NCBI RefSeq assembly: GCF_001613795.1
Contig: NZ_LPVZ01000002.1
Location: 1-64,000, forward strand
Reading direction: 5' to 3'
DNA length: 64,000 bases
Source: Thalassospira sp. MCCC 1A01148
GTDB taxonomy: Bacteria; Pseudomonadota; Alphaproteobacteria; Rhodospirillales; Thalassospiraceae
Numbering within the stretch: position 1 is the stretch's first letter; each line of letters begins with the position of its first letter. Positions 41,413 to 45,540 of the stretch are shown in pieces. The notes under the pieces were generated by a model. That model made no database searches and was not told where the DNA came from. It was given only the letters and a program-made list of their open reading frames with translations. The position numbers were made by a program, and so were the translations under genes.

Positions 41413-41808
41413 TCAGCTTTGGGTGCCAAACCGTTCCGCCATGACATCCTTAAGGGCCGCCATCAGATCATTGCTTACCTGATCAAGGCTGACGACGATG
41501 GCCGGTTTGGCCGGGGTCGGGCAGATGCCCGCCATGATGTCTTCGGCCCGCCATTGCACCATCAGGCTTTCCATCAGCTCAACCAGCGTGATCGCGGTGG
41601 GCACATGCGTGCTTTGAATGCTGGCCTCAAAGCTTTCGGCCTCGTCGCGCATGGCAAAGATCGGGCAGTATTTCTGGCCACTCTCGGTCGTTTGCAGCAA
41701 CCAGCCATTATGGTAAAGCGCCCAGACACCTTCCCATTCCGCAACCTCGCGGATGAAATCGGCGTAGCGCGTATCATCTTGCCCGGTGTCGGGGGTGCTG
41801 CTTGCCAT
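41413..41808 (-). CDS. DUF2750-like protein
   Basis: A 131-residue soluble protein. The pattern RYADFIREVAEWEGVWALYHNGWLLQTTESGQKYCPIFAMRDEAESFEAS, then TAITLVELMESLMVQWRAEDIMAGICPTPAKPAIVVSLDQV, fits DUF2750, whose members show 'VWgL...dGWa.....g....P.W....yA'. Function is unknown. Its start lies only 5 bases from the stop of the Memo-AMMECR1 gene on the same strand, so it is likely in that operon, which makes it a candidate accessory of that system. Confidence 0.72.
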   Translation of the reverse strand: MASSTPDTGQDDTRYADFIREVAEWEGVWALYHNGWLLQTTESGQKYCPIFAMRDEAESFEASIQSTHVPTAITLVELMESLMVQWRAEDIMAGICPTPAKPAIVVSLDQVSNDLMAALKDVMAERFGTQS

Positions 41809-41813
41809 AATCT

Positions 41814-43283
41814 TTAATCCTGCTGGTCCCAGAAACCGCTGGGGCGGATATTACTTGATGAAATCCCGCGGGTGATAAACCGCTCTGCGCGCATATTGGG
41901 TGACCAGTGATCCATCGCAAGCCCCGCCTTGCGCTTAAGATGGGCGAGAAAATCCTTTGGATCGGGCAACTGATCCCAAACTTGGGGCAGGAACAAGCCC
42001 CGCCGGTTGCCGTCCGAAAGAATAATCCCGTCCTCAAACGGGGTCAGTTTGGAAATAAAATCGGCTTCATCGGCAAAGCCAAACGGGTGGGGTGGCGACA
42101 GGACCGATATCGAAAGCTCCAGATCATCGCCAATCTCCGCCCGCGATAACCCGGCAAAGCGCGGATCGCGAAAGGCGGCCTTGAATGCATTCTCGCACAG
42201 ATCGGTGGCAAGTGGTGCATGCGAAATGATCGACCCGATACAACCCCGCAATTGCCCGGCTTTCTTTAGCGTCACAAAACATGCACCCGGTGCCGCAAGT
42301 GCCGGACCAACCTCATTGGCCGAGACCTGCAACGGTGCCCCGGTCTCCATCCCGTGCAGGATTGATTGCCGACACAGATCCAGCATCGCAGGACCATGCG
42401 TCCTGATCAGGGTCTCGGTCGTCTTGGTGAAGTCGTCTTCGCCGTCACCGCCCATACCCGATGCCTTTCCGTCATAAACCGCCCAGGCGCCATAGCCGAC
42501 CACGCGCGATTTATCGCCCGTCACATCGCCGGAATTGCGCATGCCAAGGGTCTTGATCTTCATACCGCGATTGCGTGCGGCCATCAGCATCCCGGCCACC
42601 GGCAACGCGCCACAGGCATCGTTTGTATCAATATTCTCGGCATCGAAGTTCTCGATCATCGCGCGGGTGCGGTTATCCATCTTTTTCGCAGTGTCATAAT
42701 CATGGAAATGCGACAGATCCGATGAAATCACGATCAGGGTTTCCGGCCCGCCCCAAAGCTTCTCGATCACCTCATGCACCTGACGCGGGCTGCATCGGCT
42801 GACCAGAAGCGGCACAATGCCGATATCAGCATCCTCGCCAAACAGGCGCTGGATAAACGGCAATTCGATCTCAAGCCCGTGCTCAAGCGTGTGTGCGTCG
42901 TCCAGCATCTGAACATGCGGCAACGCCAATGCCTTTTGCAGTGCTGGCAGGTCACAGCGCATATTGCCAAGCGGGGTGGCAAACTGATCGGCGCGCGCCA
43001 GCGCAATTCCCTGAAACGCCATGCGATGCGCAGGGCCAATGATCACAATGCGTTTGATGGTGTCCTTCAACGCCCGAACGGTGGCAAAGCCAAGGGCGGC
43101 CAGACTGCCCGAAAACATCAAACCCGCATGCGGCACAATGATCGCCTTGGGCGTGGCCGTTTCTTGCTGCGCGACGCCCGATTGCAAGGCCGCACCCATC
43201 AGTCCGTCAATCTCGCTACGCAAGAGATCGGCATCGGCCGGATAAAACGTCCCGGCAACAGCAGGCGGGCGGATGATGGTCAT
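41814..43283 (-). CDS. Memo-AMMECR1 fusion protein (AmmeMemoRadiSam proteins B and A)
   Basis: A 489-residue protein with two domains usually encoded apart. Residues 1-270 are a Memo domain, related to class III extradiol dioxygenases (LigB). H52 (VPHAGLMFSG), H86 (GPAHRMAF) and C224 (NDACGALPV) line up by eye with the iron-binding H49, H81 and C244 of human MEMO1; HTLEHGLEIELPF and SSDLSHF are also conserved. Residues about 295-480 are an AMMECR1 domain with the hallmark LRGCIGS at 345-351. The radical SAM partner is divergent, 706 bases away. The biochemical role of the system is unknown. Confidence 0.9.
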   Translation of the reverse strand: MTIIRPPAVAGTFYPADADLLRSEIDGLMGAALQSGVAQQETATPKAIIVPHAGLMFSGSLAALGFATVRALKDTIKRIVIIGPAHRMAFQGIALARADQFATPLGNMRCDLPALQKALALPHVQMLDDAHTLEHGLEIELPFIQRLFGEDADIGIVPLLVSRCSPRQVHEVIEKLWGGPETLIVISSDLSHFHDYDTAKKMDNRTRAMIENFDAENIDTNDACGALPVAGMLMAARNRGMKIKTLGMRNSGDVTGDKSRVVGYGAWAVYDGKASGMGGDGEDDFTKTTETLIRTHGPAMLDLCRQSILHGMETGAPLQVSANEVGPALAAPGACFVTLKKAGQLRGCIGSIISHAPLATDLCENAFKAAFRDPRFAGLSRAEIGDDLELSISVLSPPHPFGFADEADFISKLTPFEDGIILSDGNRRGLFLPQVWDQLPDPKDFLAHLKRKAGLAMDHWSPNMRAERFITRGISSSNIRPSGFWDQQD

Positions 43284-43383
43284 AATGTTTCCAATCGCAT
43301 GACTTCCTTTGAAAAAGATAGCGATCAGGACTAGATAAATAAAGTGCGTATACTCAAAGTTGAATTGACCTTGGAGGTGCCGG

Positions 43384-43920: not shown

Positions 43921-43989
43921 TTTAGAATTCGAAAGATTATGTTTGATCGGCTGTCTTGATGCTAACTCCAGTCTCGTGATTGCAAGGTG

Positions 43990-45078
43990 ATGGCAAACCT
44001 AACCGACACCGTTCCGGCCCGTTACTGGCACCATCTCGATGATGGTCGTATTCAGTGCGATGTCTGCCCGCGCTTTTGCAAGCTCAACGACGGGCAGCGG
44101 GGCTTGTGTTTTGTACGGGCCCGGCAAGGCGATCAGATGGTGCTGACGACGTGGGGTCGATCCTCGGGCTTTTGCATTGATCCGATCGAGAAAAAGCCGC
44201 TCAATCACTTTCTGCCCGGCACCCCGATCCTGTCCTTTGGCACGGCGGGTTGTAACCTGACCTGCAAGTTCTGCCAGAATTACGAAATCTCAAAAGCGCG
44301 CGAGATGGACAAGCTTTCCTCGCTCGCGACCCCGGAAATGATCGCCAAAACCGCCAAGGCCTATGGCTGCTCTGCGGTCGCGTTTACGTATAATGATCCG
44401 GTGATCTTTCTCGAATATGCCGTTGATGTTGCCATTGCCTGTCGCGAAATGGGCCTGCGCACCGTGGCGGTCACGGCGGGTTATATTGGCGATAAGGCGC
44501 GCGAGGAATTCTTTCGTCACATGGATGCCGCCAATGTCGATCTGAAGGGTTTTACGGATCGCTTTTATCATCAGCTGTGCTCGGCCCATCTGGGTGACGT
44601 GCTGGACACGCTTAAATATCTGCGCCACGAAACCGGGGTCTGGATGGAGCTGACCAACCTTGTCATTCCCGGCGAAAATGATGGTGACGCGGAATTCCAC
44701 GAAATGACGTCATGGGTGCATGATGAACTCGGCCCCGATGTGCCAATGCATTTCTCGGCCTTTCATCCCGACTGGAAAATGATGGATACCCCGCGCACCC
44801 CGCCCGAAACGCTGGTGCGTGCGCGCAGGATCGCCATGGAAAACGGCATTCGCTATGCCTATGTCGGCAATGTTCATGACAAAACCCACAGCAGCACCTT
44901 TTGCCACGGCTGCGGTGATATCCTGATTGGCCGTGACTGGTATCAGTTGTCTGACTGGAACCTTGATGCGCAGGGTGCATGTAAAAGCTGTGGTACACAT
45001 TGTGCCGGTGTGTTTCGGGCACATCCCGGCACATGGGGCCCGAAACGCCAACCGGTCCGCTTGATGGCCGGCAACTAA
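43990..45078 (+). CDS. amrS: AmmeMemoRadiSam system radical SAM enzyme
   Basis: A 362-residue radical SAM protein. The [4Fe-4S] motif is CNLTCKFC (C88, C92, C95), preceded by FGTAG. An N-terminal cysteine cluster (CDVCPRFC and GLC, C23, C26, C30, C40) and C-terminal pairs (CHGCGD, CKSCGTHC) probably bind extra metal. AFTYNDPVIFLEYAVD, DLKGFTDRFYHQL and FHPDWKMMDTP follow the AmrS/PflA-like pattern. A GTG at 43987 is possible; neither start has a good ribosome site. It acts with the Memo-AMMECR1 protein by genomic association; the substrate is not known. Confidence 0.92.
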   Translation: MANLTDTVPARYWHHLDDGRIQCDVCPRFCKLNDGQRGLCFVRARQGDQMVLTTWGRSSGFCIDPIEKKPLNHFLPGTPILSFGTAGCNLTCKFCQNYEISKAREMDKLSSLATPEMIAKTAKAYGCSAVAFTYNDPVIFLEYAVDVAIACREMGLRTVAVTAGYIGDKAREEFFRHMDAANVDLKGFTDRFYHQLCSAHLGDVLDTLKYLRHETGVWMELTNLVIPGENDGDAEFHEMTSWVHDELGPDVPMHFSAFHPDWKMMDTPRTPPETLVRARRIAMENGIRYAYVGNVHDKTHSSTFCHGCGDILIGRDWYQLSDWNLDAQGACKSCGTHCAGVFRAHPGTWGPKRQPVRLMAGN

Positions 45079-45141
45079 GCAGTCAGAACCAACAAGACTT
45101 CAGCCGTAAATTCACGGCCATAATTCCGCAGGGAGAACGAC

Positions 45142-45540
45142 ATGGATATCAAACGCGCCGGATCACAGGCCTCAACGGTCGGATCCCCGGAATATTTCAC
45201 CGGACAGGTTCGCATCGAACCGATCATCAGTGCCACGGACCCCGCCCGTGTGGCCGCCGCCAATGTGACGTTCGAGCCGGGCGCACGCACCACATGGCAT
45301 ACCCATCCATTGGGCCAGACCATCATCGTGACCGCCGGTTTTGGCCGGGCACAGCGCGAAGGCGGCCCGATAGAGGAAATCCGTCCCGGCGATATCGTCT
45401 GGTTTGAACCGGGCGAAAAACACTGGCACGGGGCCGGTCCCGAAACCGCCATGACCCATATCGCCATTCAGGAAAAGCTCAATGGCTCCCCGGTCGATTG
45501 GCTGGAACCCGTAACCGATGCGGATTATCTCGGCCAATAA
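45142..45540 (+). CDS. Cupin-domain protein
   Basis: A 132-residue single-domain cupin. Motif 1 is VTFEPGARTTWHTHPLGQTIIVTAGFG with two metal-ligand histidines (WHTHP) and a Gln; motif 2 is IRPGDIVWFEPGEKHWHGAGP with HWHG. The layout is like manganese cupins such as the (R)-selective hydroxynitrile lyases and TM1287-type proteins, but the reaction is not predictable. GGGAG precedes the ATG. It lies 63 bases after the radical SAM gene on the same strand and could be co-transcribed with it. Confidence 0.86.
   Translation: MDIKRAGSQASTVGSPEYFTGQVRIEPIISATDPARVAAANVTFEPGARTTWHTHPLGQTIIVTAGFGRAQREGGPIEEIRPGDIVWFEPGEKHWHGAGPETAMTHIAIQEKLNGSPVDWLEPVTDADYLGQ

What the first reader, a model, noticed from the sequence alone, without database searches (positions are those of the whole stretch)
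41413..45540. AmmeMemoRadiSam locus with fused Memo-AMMECR1 protein and a divergent radical SAM partner
One polypeptide (41814-43283) joins a Memo domain with likely iron ligands H52, H86, C224 to an AMMECR1 domain (LRGCIG at 345-350). The cognate radical SAM enzyme (43990-45078, CxxxCxxC plus two extra Cys clusters) is divergent from it. The trio is a known co-occurring set whose reaction is unresolved; human MEMO1 and AMMECR1 are disease-linked. Fusion implies the two domains act together. A DUF2750 gene 5 bases downstream of the fusion and a cupin 63 bases downstream of the radical SAM gene are candidate accessory parts. Together they suggest an iron- and radical-dependent modification of an unknown substrate.
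Basis: partly seen in the sequence, partly recalled or inferred. Interest (0 to 1): 0.8.

Follow-up and report, generated by a model that had tools for sequence, protein, structure and literature searches.

The report
Enzyme trio with swappable foreign gene
This is a Thalassospira copy of a known bacterial enzyme trio related to human MEMO1 and AMMECR1, with two of the three parts fused into one protein that faces the third, and in about half of the related genomes examined the gap between them holds a likely foreign gene that differs from strain to strain and is predicted to use the trio's own promoter.

Summary
The genes are as described. 41814-43283(-) is one protein scoring over NCBI's cut-offs for AmmeMemoRadiSam proteins B (Memo) and A (AMMECR1); 43990-45078(+) is full-length AmrS. 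This is a known trio, and the fusion is common: 118 of the 120 best listed protein hits carry both Pfam domains. Of 100 Pseudomonadota genomes, 42 hold all three families, 2 only some, 56 none. The iron-ligand positions of human MEMO1 (H49, H81, C244) are kept (H52, H86, C224). The accessory claim fails outside the genus: DUF2750 and cupin genes recur in 21 and 12 of 29 Thalassospira loci, 0 of 27 other same-order loci, 0 of 76 wider loci. That gap is enlarged in 16 of 29 Thalassospira genomes, always by A+T-rich DNA with changing cargo (AbiJ-like, AriA-like, others). The 13 short gaps share a block readable as overlapping divergent promoters; in the window its right end is replaced by the insert. 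I commit, with low confidence in the chemistry, to one pathway: AmrS makes a radical change, Memo iron processes the product. New member of a known kind; the cargo site is the newer part.

The parts
41814..43283 (-). Memo-AMMECR1 fusion (AmmeMemoRadiSam proteins B+A), 489 aa; Memo residues 5-268 with H52, H86, C224; AMMECR1 residues 300-471 with LRGCIG 345-350
43990..45078 (+). AmrS, radical SAM enzyme of the system, 362 aa
   Evidence: TIGR04337 640.5 bits, full length; single copy in this genome
43307..43336 (.). Left part of the predicted overlapping divergent promoter block (CTTTGAAAAAGATAGCGATCAGGACTAGAT); its right end (TTTCAAAG in cargo-free relatives) is replaced by the insert
   Evidence: the promoter reading is inferred
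43513..43920 (+). Insert gene between the divergent pair, 135 aa (open frame from 43384); no family, no relative found beyond its own copy; A+T-rich (G+C 0.43 against 0.56 for the window)
41413..41808 (-). DUF2750 gene: neighbour kept in 21 of 29 Thalassospira loci, not a part of the system
45142..45540 (+). Cupin, (R)-mandelonitrile-lyase-like (NF049940): neighbour in 12 of 29 Thalassospira loci, not a part of the system

Best explanation
The locus is a known three-part enzyme set, a Memo-AMMECR1 fusion gene facing its radical SAM partner AmrS, and the three proteins likely act in one pathway in which AmrS would make a radical-based change to a substrate that AMMECR1 presents and that the Memo half, predicted to bind iron, then processes. 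Shown: family membership, fusion, conserved ligand positions, co-occurrence of the three families in 42 of the 44 genomes that carry any of them (100 examined), and head-to-head AmrS/Memo genes in 55 of 58 wider loci that hold both. Inferred: that they share one substrate, that Memo binds iron here, the order of steps, and AMMECR1 as the substrate-presenting half. The substrate is not known; a nucleobase-like or isoprenoid-like compound is the published guess that I recall. DUF2750 and the cupin are genus-level neighbours, not parts. The 43284-43989 gap is a likely cargo site: foreign single genes are predicted to enter between the overlapping divergent promoters and their first genes, and to be transcribed with AmrS or with the fusion.
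For: Family scores far over cut-offs. Co-occurrence: AmrS, Memo and AMMECR1 are each found in 43 of 100 Pseudomonadota genomes (this one included), all three in 42; G081 has only AmrS, G152 lacks AmrS. 56 of 60 relatives have an AmrS match, 55 over the cut-off. In 17 genomes of one family (f49) the genes form a co-directional Memo-AMMECR1-AmrS row; in many others AmrS lies on another contig or far from the pair, so co-occurrence is not only linkage (my reading of the coordinates). Fused/split state changes at least 3 times on starred branches of a Memo tree of 83 rows, 10 on the best tree. H52, H86, H135, E138, D189, H192 kept in 112 of 112 Memo rows, C224 in 110 with 2 gaps; the profile alignment places H52, H86, C224 on MEMO1 H49, H81, C244, the iron ligands of 7KQ8 (PMC11081632, passages read). 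AMMECR1 R346, G347, C348 and G350 kept in 90 of 90 main rows and in 11 of 12 rows of the second set (R346 in 12). Head-to-head genes in 55 of 58. Cargo site: 16 of 29 Thalassospira gaps are 360-2202 nt against 86-137 nt in the other 13, all 16 lower in G+C than their locus, different genes in near relatives.
Against: No substrate, product or activity is known to me for any of the three; human MEMO1 showed no dioxygenase activity on the substrates its authors tried (PMC11081632). AmrS resembles glycyl-radical activases: 13 of its 23 NCBIfam matches are activases of glycyl-radical enzymes or anaerobic ribonucleotide reductase, all under their cut-offs, and its only PDB matches are PFL-activating enzymes; that would fit protein activation instead. 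Memo and AMMECR1 can occur without AmrS (G152; by recall also in animals and yeast), and among the 14 control genomes Thermus composti has Memo alone and Haloferax volcanii AMMECR1 alone at the thresholds used, so AmrS is not always needed. 19 of 80 wider AmrS loci show no Memo although 1.2 kb or more of upstream DNA is held. The AmrS model is poor (pLDDT 73), so its extra cysteine clusters were not interpreted. The insert's promoter use is read from sequence only; a consensus scan of the window's gap found nothing above chance.
Confidence: 0.5

Rival explanations
1. AmrS is an activase: it modifies the fusion protein itself, for example making a radical or a cross-link at the conserved RGCIG loop of AMMECR1, and the activated fusion then does the chemistry.
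For: The only PDB matches of AmrS are pyruvate formate-lyase activating enzymes, and 13 of its 23 NCBIfam matches are activases of glycyl-radical enzymes or anaerobic ribonucleotide reductase. RGC-G is conserved in 90 of 90 main rows. Strict co-occurrence.
Against: TIGR02493 score 55.5 against a cut-off of 231.75. Memo and AMMECR1 exist without AmrS (G152; animals and yeast by recall). Thalassospira grows in air (recalled), where a glycyl radical would be short-lived.
Confidence: 0.2
2. AmrS and Memo are alternative enzymes for one step, AmrS without oxygen and Memo with it, as HemN and HemF are (recalled), and the overlapping promoters choose between them.
For: Head-to-head genes; in Thalassospira the overlapping promoter-like block would admit only one polymerase at a time (general principle from the Introduction of PMC12825309). 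Memo has an extradiol-dioxygenase fold.
Against: In 17 genomes of family f49 the three genes run in one direction in a row. Memo and AmrS occur together in Thermotoga maritima and Methanocaldococcus jannaschii (controls), strict anaerobes by recall, where an oxygen-using Memo makes little sense.
Confidence: 0.1
3. The DUF2750 protein and the cupin are working parts of the system in Thalassospira.
For: DUF2750 lies 5 nt downstream of the fusion and is kept in 21 of 29 Thalassospira loci, with native G+C here (0.586).
Against: DUF2750 is absent in 8 of 29 Thalassospira loci, 27 of 27 other same-order loci and 76 of 76 wider loci; the cupin is found in 12 of 29, 0 of 27, 0 of 76.
Confidence: 0.07
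4. The insert gene 43513-43920 is a chance ORF in ordinary intergenic DNA.
For: No homologue in any library or collection searched, beyond its own copy.
Against: The gap is 86-137 nt in 13 of 29 Thalassospira genomes; here it is 706 nt of A+T-rich DNA that has replaced one end of the conserved block; other genomes carry genes of known families at the same site.
Confidence: 0.25

Closest known systems
AmmeMemoRadiSam system (NCBIfam TIGR04335, TIGR04336, TIGR04337)
   Same: All three models pass their cut-offs, AmrS over its full length
   Different: A and B are one polypeptide; the fusion is widespread in relatives, so this is not peculiar to the window
Human MEMO1 (PDB 7kq8)
   Different: Fused to AMMECR1; iron binding not measured
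AMMECR1 family structures (1vaj PH0010, 1zq7, 1wsc)
   Different: Those entries are stand-alone AMMECR1 domains, titled as uncharacterised
Class III extradiol dioxygenases (LigAB, DesB, 2-aminophenol 1,6-dioxygenase)
   Different: Third ligand position is Cys, not Glu (PMC11081632 passages)
Pyruvate formate-lyase activating enzyme (3c8f, 8fo0)
   Same: Radical SAM core, E 1.9e-9 with the AmrS profile
   Different: AmrS has extra N- and C-terminal cysteine clusters and scores far below the PFL-activase cut-off
Variable defence-gene sites flanked by core genes (recalled kind)
   Same: Conserved flanks, changing A+T-rich single genes, some matching anti-phage families
   Different: Here the cargo sits inside a divergent promoter region; no integrase turned up among the family matches of the cargo proteins scanned

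Membership tests
AmmeMemoRadiSam system | Protein B (Memo) over the TIGR04336 cut-off | tested here: met
   241.6 bits, cut-off 26
AmmeMemoRadiSam system | Protein A (AMMECR1) over the TIGR04335 cut-off | tested here: met
   188.3 bits, cut-off 99
AmmeMemoRadiSam system | Radical SAM enzyme over the TIGR04337 cut-off, CxxxCxxC present | tested here: met
   640.5 bits, cut-off 220; C88, C92, C95
AmmeMemoRadiSam system | The three families occur together | tested here: met
   All three in 42 of the 44 genomes with any of them, 100 examined
MEMO1-type iron protein | Two His and one Cys at MEMO1 H49, H81, C244 | tested here: met
   H52, H86, C224
MEMO1-type iron protein | Binds iron | not testable with these tools
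   Needs purified protein
Class III extradiol dioxygenase | 2-His-1-carboxylate (Glu/Asp) iron site | tested here: not met
   Cys at the third position in 110 of 112 rows, 2 gaps
Glycyl-radical enzyme activase (PflA) | Score over the TIGR02493 cut-off | tested here: not met
   55.5 bits, cut-off 231.75
Defence-gene variable site | Same flanks, different cargo in near relatives, foreign base composition | tested here: met
   16 of 29 Thalassospira gaps enlarged, all lower in G+C; cargo differs between relatives 92-95% identical in amrS
Defence-gene variable site | Cargo gives phage resistance | not tested
   Family matches only: AbiJ_NTD4, AriAB model 4e-63; most cargo families had no defence match

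The most novel reading that the evidence does not exclude
In Thalassospira the overlapping divergent promoters of the AmmeMemoRadiSam genes act as an expression-capture site: single foreign genes, some of them anti-phage, are swapped in by recombination between strains as the first gene behind the housekeeping promoter, so that defence cargo is expressed with amrS or with the Memo-AMMECR1 gene. The window's 135-aa gene, without relatives in the searched collections, would be a new single-gene defence candidate found by position alone.
Probability: 0.35. Interest if true: 0.6.

Novelty: new member of a known kind. Interest (0 to 1): 0.4.

Why it matters
The trio's reaction is, as far as I know, unresolved, and its human relatives MEMO1 and AMMECR1 have no agreed biochemical function (for MEMO1 see PMC11081632, listing and passages; for AMMECR1 by recall). 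A natural one-chain Memo-AMMECR1 protein with a single amrS in one genome is a convenient form for testing it. The cargo site, if real, is a place to find new single-gene defence candidates in marine bacteria.

Tried and rejected
Selenocysteine in AmrS: six diverged AmrS-like copies and the AmrS of G143 were flagged with one in-frame TGA. Reading them showed the TGA right after a GVWT, GVWA or GRW ending with unrelated sequence behind it: ordinary stop codons that the match ran through. Rejected.

Accessory role of DUF2750 and cupin: rejected outside the genus (profile built from the window protein and its matches, E 1e-5; remote relatives could be missed, and several loci are short). Neighbours CysQ, TsaC and PepA recur (13, 12 and 21 of 27 same-order loci; 15, 12 and 13 of 80 wider loci). 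By record titles the wider ones are Thalassospira, other alphaproteobacteria or unplaced Proteobacteria, except CysQ-type hits in two gammaproteobacterial loci, L120 and L133, whose place I did not check. I read them as shared gene order, not as partners.

A cargo site in other taxa: large gaps outside Thalassospira (L061, L071, L082/L102, L105, L123, L131, L144, L148, L167, L085) held various ORFs, one a peroxiredoxin by my reading of its sequence; no family or defence scan was run on them, so I do not extend the claim.

Dyad strength: the loose pattern (up to 12 substitutions) matches 9 of 300 random 700-nt pieces of the window, so the matches in L047 and L051 at that level are chance-level by that test. 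The strict form, first scanned on one strand and then on both, is found in 15 of 28 loci, every time in this gap and nowhere else in 411 kb; it is in 11 of the 13 short gaps (not L051, L055) and not in the window, whose block is cut. A consensus promoter scan of the window's gap found 1 site where 1.2 are expected by chance. Cargo direction: in 7 of 8 enlarged gaps with a recognisable block and an ORF the cargo points away from the block (window, L058, L059; L037, L045, L048, L049); L043's longest ORF points towards it; L033 has no clear ORF. These are not independent (L037, L045, L048 and L049 share one cargo family). In 7 enlarged gaps no block was recognised beyond chance (L032, L035, L042, L044, L046, L047, L053).

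No match to the locus in plasmids and none to the insert gene in phages; one plasmid relative of the 168-aa cargo, in Deinococcus, 39.7%. AlphaFold2 of AmrS was too poor to use. The relative placement of the two halves of the fusion could not be measured, since coordinates are not given.

Repeats among rows: at least nine loci were fetched twice under two ids (L033/L088, L037/L091, L039/L089, L045/L090, L067/L097, L076/L136, L077/L154, L078/L164, L082/L102), so counts include near-copies and the 80 wider loci include four Thalassospira. The Memo tree used 83 rows left from 114 after clustering at 85%. In the 80 wider loci 22 showed no Memo, 3 of them cut off within 1.2 kb.
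Full report

The iron site. A profile of 71 fusions aligns to MEMO1 so that H52, H86 and C224 fall on H49, H81 and C244 (I counted the residue numbers from the printed alignment). These bind iron in 7KQ8 (PMC11081632, passages read). All three are invariant in the 71 fusions. In 112 Memo rows of wider origin H52 and H86 are kept in all, C224 in 110 with 2 gaps. A Cys in place of Glu sets the Memo site apart from dioxygenases, and no dioxygenase activity was found for MEMO1 on the substrates tried. 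Iron in this protein is untested.

Is the trio one system? Of 100 Pseudomonadota genomes at least 95% complete (this one included), AmrS, Memo and AMMECR1 are each found in 43, all three in 42; G081 has AmrS only and G152 Memo and AMMECR1 only (for G100 the AmrS is a diverged copy). In family f49 (17 genomes by my reading of the coordinates) the genes run Memo-AMMECR1-AmrS in one direction with short gaps; in many others AmrS lies on another contig or far away, so co-occurrence is not a by-product of linkage. Among 60 relatives 56 have AmrS, 47 of the 48 more complete ones. Among 80 AmrS loci from many phyla, 58 hold Memo nearby, and in 55 of these AmrS and Memo are head-to-head (2 convergent, 1 same strand); 13 of the 55 gaps are at most 110 nt between profile starts; 19 loci show no Memo although enough upstream DNA is held. 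Twelve of the 80 are fused. On a Memo tree of 83 rows the fused/split state changes at least 3 times on starred branches and 10 times on the best tree, which cannot tell gain from loss. Together this is good evidence that Memo and AMMECR1 work as a unit, with AmrS in the same pathway.

Accessory genes. DUF2750 is found in 21 of 29 Thalassospira loci, 0 of 27 loci from other genera of the order, and 4 of 80 wider loci, all four from the genus (L088-L091; L089 is the contig of L039); the cupin in 12 of 29, 0 of 27 and 1 of 80 (L089). Both have native G+C (0.586, 0.607). What recurs in the order is CysQ, TsaC and PepA (13, 12 and 21 of 27). The cupin scores as an (R)-mandelonitrile lyase family member, which suggests an unrelated role.

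The missed insert. Between the two divergent genes lie 706 nt with an ORF (43384-43920; the database form is 135 aa, 43513-43920). It has no match in NCBIfam, Pfam, PADLOC or PHROGs, none in phages, and among about 5.8 billion proteins only one cluster of two sequences that the tool lists as the window's own (the protein search needs shared five-residue words, so remote kin could be missed). Its G+C is 0.43 against 0.56 for the window. In 29 Thalassospira genomes the gap is 86-137 nt in 13 and 360-2202 nt in 16; all 16 large gaps are lower in G+C than their locus, 0.345-0.454. Cargo differs: AbiJ_NTD4-type proteins in L032, L035, L046 (PF18863 34.6 bits, cut-off 34, in L032, the one scanned with Pfam; the other two are about 81% identical to it), an AAA_21 ATPase with PADLOC AriAB 4e-63 in L058, a 168-222-aa family in L037, L045, L048, L049, a protein with weak phage tail-fibre likeness in L059, and others without named families. 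Near relatives differ: the window's nearest, L059 (95% in amrS), carries another gene and L034 (92.7%) none; L055 (none), L035 (AbiJ-like) and L058 (AriA-like) are 94.5-95% identical to one another in amrS. A Dsr1-like SIR2 gene (1.9e-97) sits on the other side of AmrS in L056. Partial copies of the AMMECR1 3' end (L034, L048, L059) and of the AmrS 5' end (L043) border inserts, as homologous recombination with one heterologous end would leave; that mechanism is inferred.

The promoter region. The 13 short gaps align on one block, CTTTGnAAAAGATArCG...TAGATTTTnAAAG, with some divergence at its right end in L040, L051, L054 and L055. In the common form, read as sigma-70 elements, it gives TTGAAA-17-TAGATT towards AmrS and TTGAAA-16-TATCTT towards the fusion, each within the other's footprint. 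The strict dyad occurs in 15 of the 28 loci (11 of the 13 short gaps), always in this gap and nowhere else in 411 kb on either strand. RNA polymerase cannot occupy opposing overlapping promoters at once (PMC12825309, abstract and Introduction read); that paper's bidirectional promoters share a -10 element, which this one does not. A consensus scan of the window's own gap gave nothing above chance; the window keeps CTTTGAAAAAGATAGCGATCAGGACTAGAT at 43307-43336 and then diverges. In 7 of 8 gaps with both a recognisable block and an ORF the cargo is the first gene pointing away from the block; in 7 further enlarged gaps no block was recognised.

How it works, in my reading. AmrS makes a 5'-deoxyadenosyl radical (family knowledge) and changes a substrate; AMMECR1, with its conserved RGC-G loop, presents or binds it; Memo's His2Cys iron processes the product. 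The first step is inferred from the family, the rest from co-occurrence, fusion and conservation. I put the single-pathway claim high and this order of steps low. The rivals are an activase role for AmrS, favoured by its likeness to PFL-activating enzymes, and alternative aerobic/anaerobic enzymes, disfavoured by one-direction gene rows and by anaerobes that hold both.

Known or new. The trio and its prokaryotic co-occurrence are known (NCBIfam names; Burroughs et al. 2019, JBC, seen only as a citation in PMC7159879; I recall that it proposes nucleobase and isoprenoid contexts). Named database entries already describe such fusions ('AmmeMemoRadiSam system protein B/AmmeMemoRadiSam system protein A'). 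The cargo site is not mentioned in what I read; I ran one general search on defence hotspots and none naming Thalassospira, so I do not claim that it is unpublished.

Noticed in passing
   Followed up: yes
L056:3073-6861: Dsr1-like SIR2 defence gene (PADLOC 1.9e-97) inserted between AmrS and the GNAT gene in another Thalassospira genome.
   Followed up: partly
L058:5097-6959: AAA_21 ATPase matching PADLOC AriAB (4e-63) in the gap between the fusion and AmrS.
   Followed up: partly
L034, L048, L059: A second, partial copy of the AMMECR1 3' end lies about 2 kb from the intact gene, beyond an insert that includes genes resembling a DJ-1/AraC-type regulator and a GNAT acetyltransferase (my reading of the sequence; no family scan).
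   Followed up: partly
L043:5625-5738: A short copy of the AmrS 5' end beside the intact promoter-like block, about 1.2 kb upstream of the full AmrS gene.
   Followed up: partly
L168, L169, L171, L172, L173: A diverged AmrS-like gene (C62 and C308 replaced in most) next to a co-directional, longer Memo-AMMECR1 fusion, in five other Pseudomonadota genomes, four of which also hold a standard AmrS (G100 does not). Looks like a paralogous subtype of the system.
   Followed up: partly
window 37644-41310 and 46275-49220: GlcD-like oxidase, TsaC/Sua5, CysQ, NnrS and PepA flank the locus; CysQ, TsaC and PepA keep this place in many genomes of the order.
   Followed up: partly
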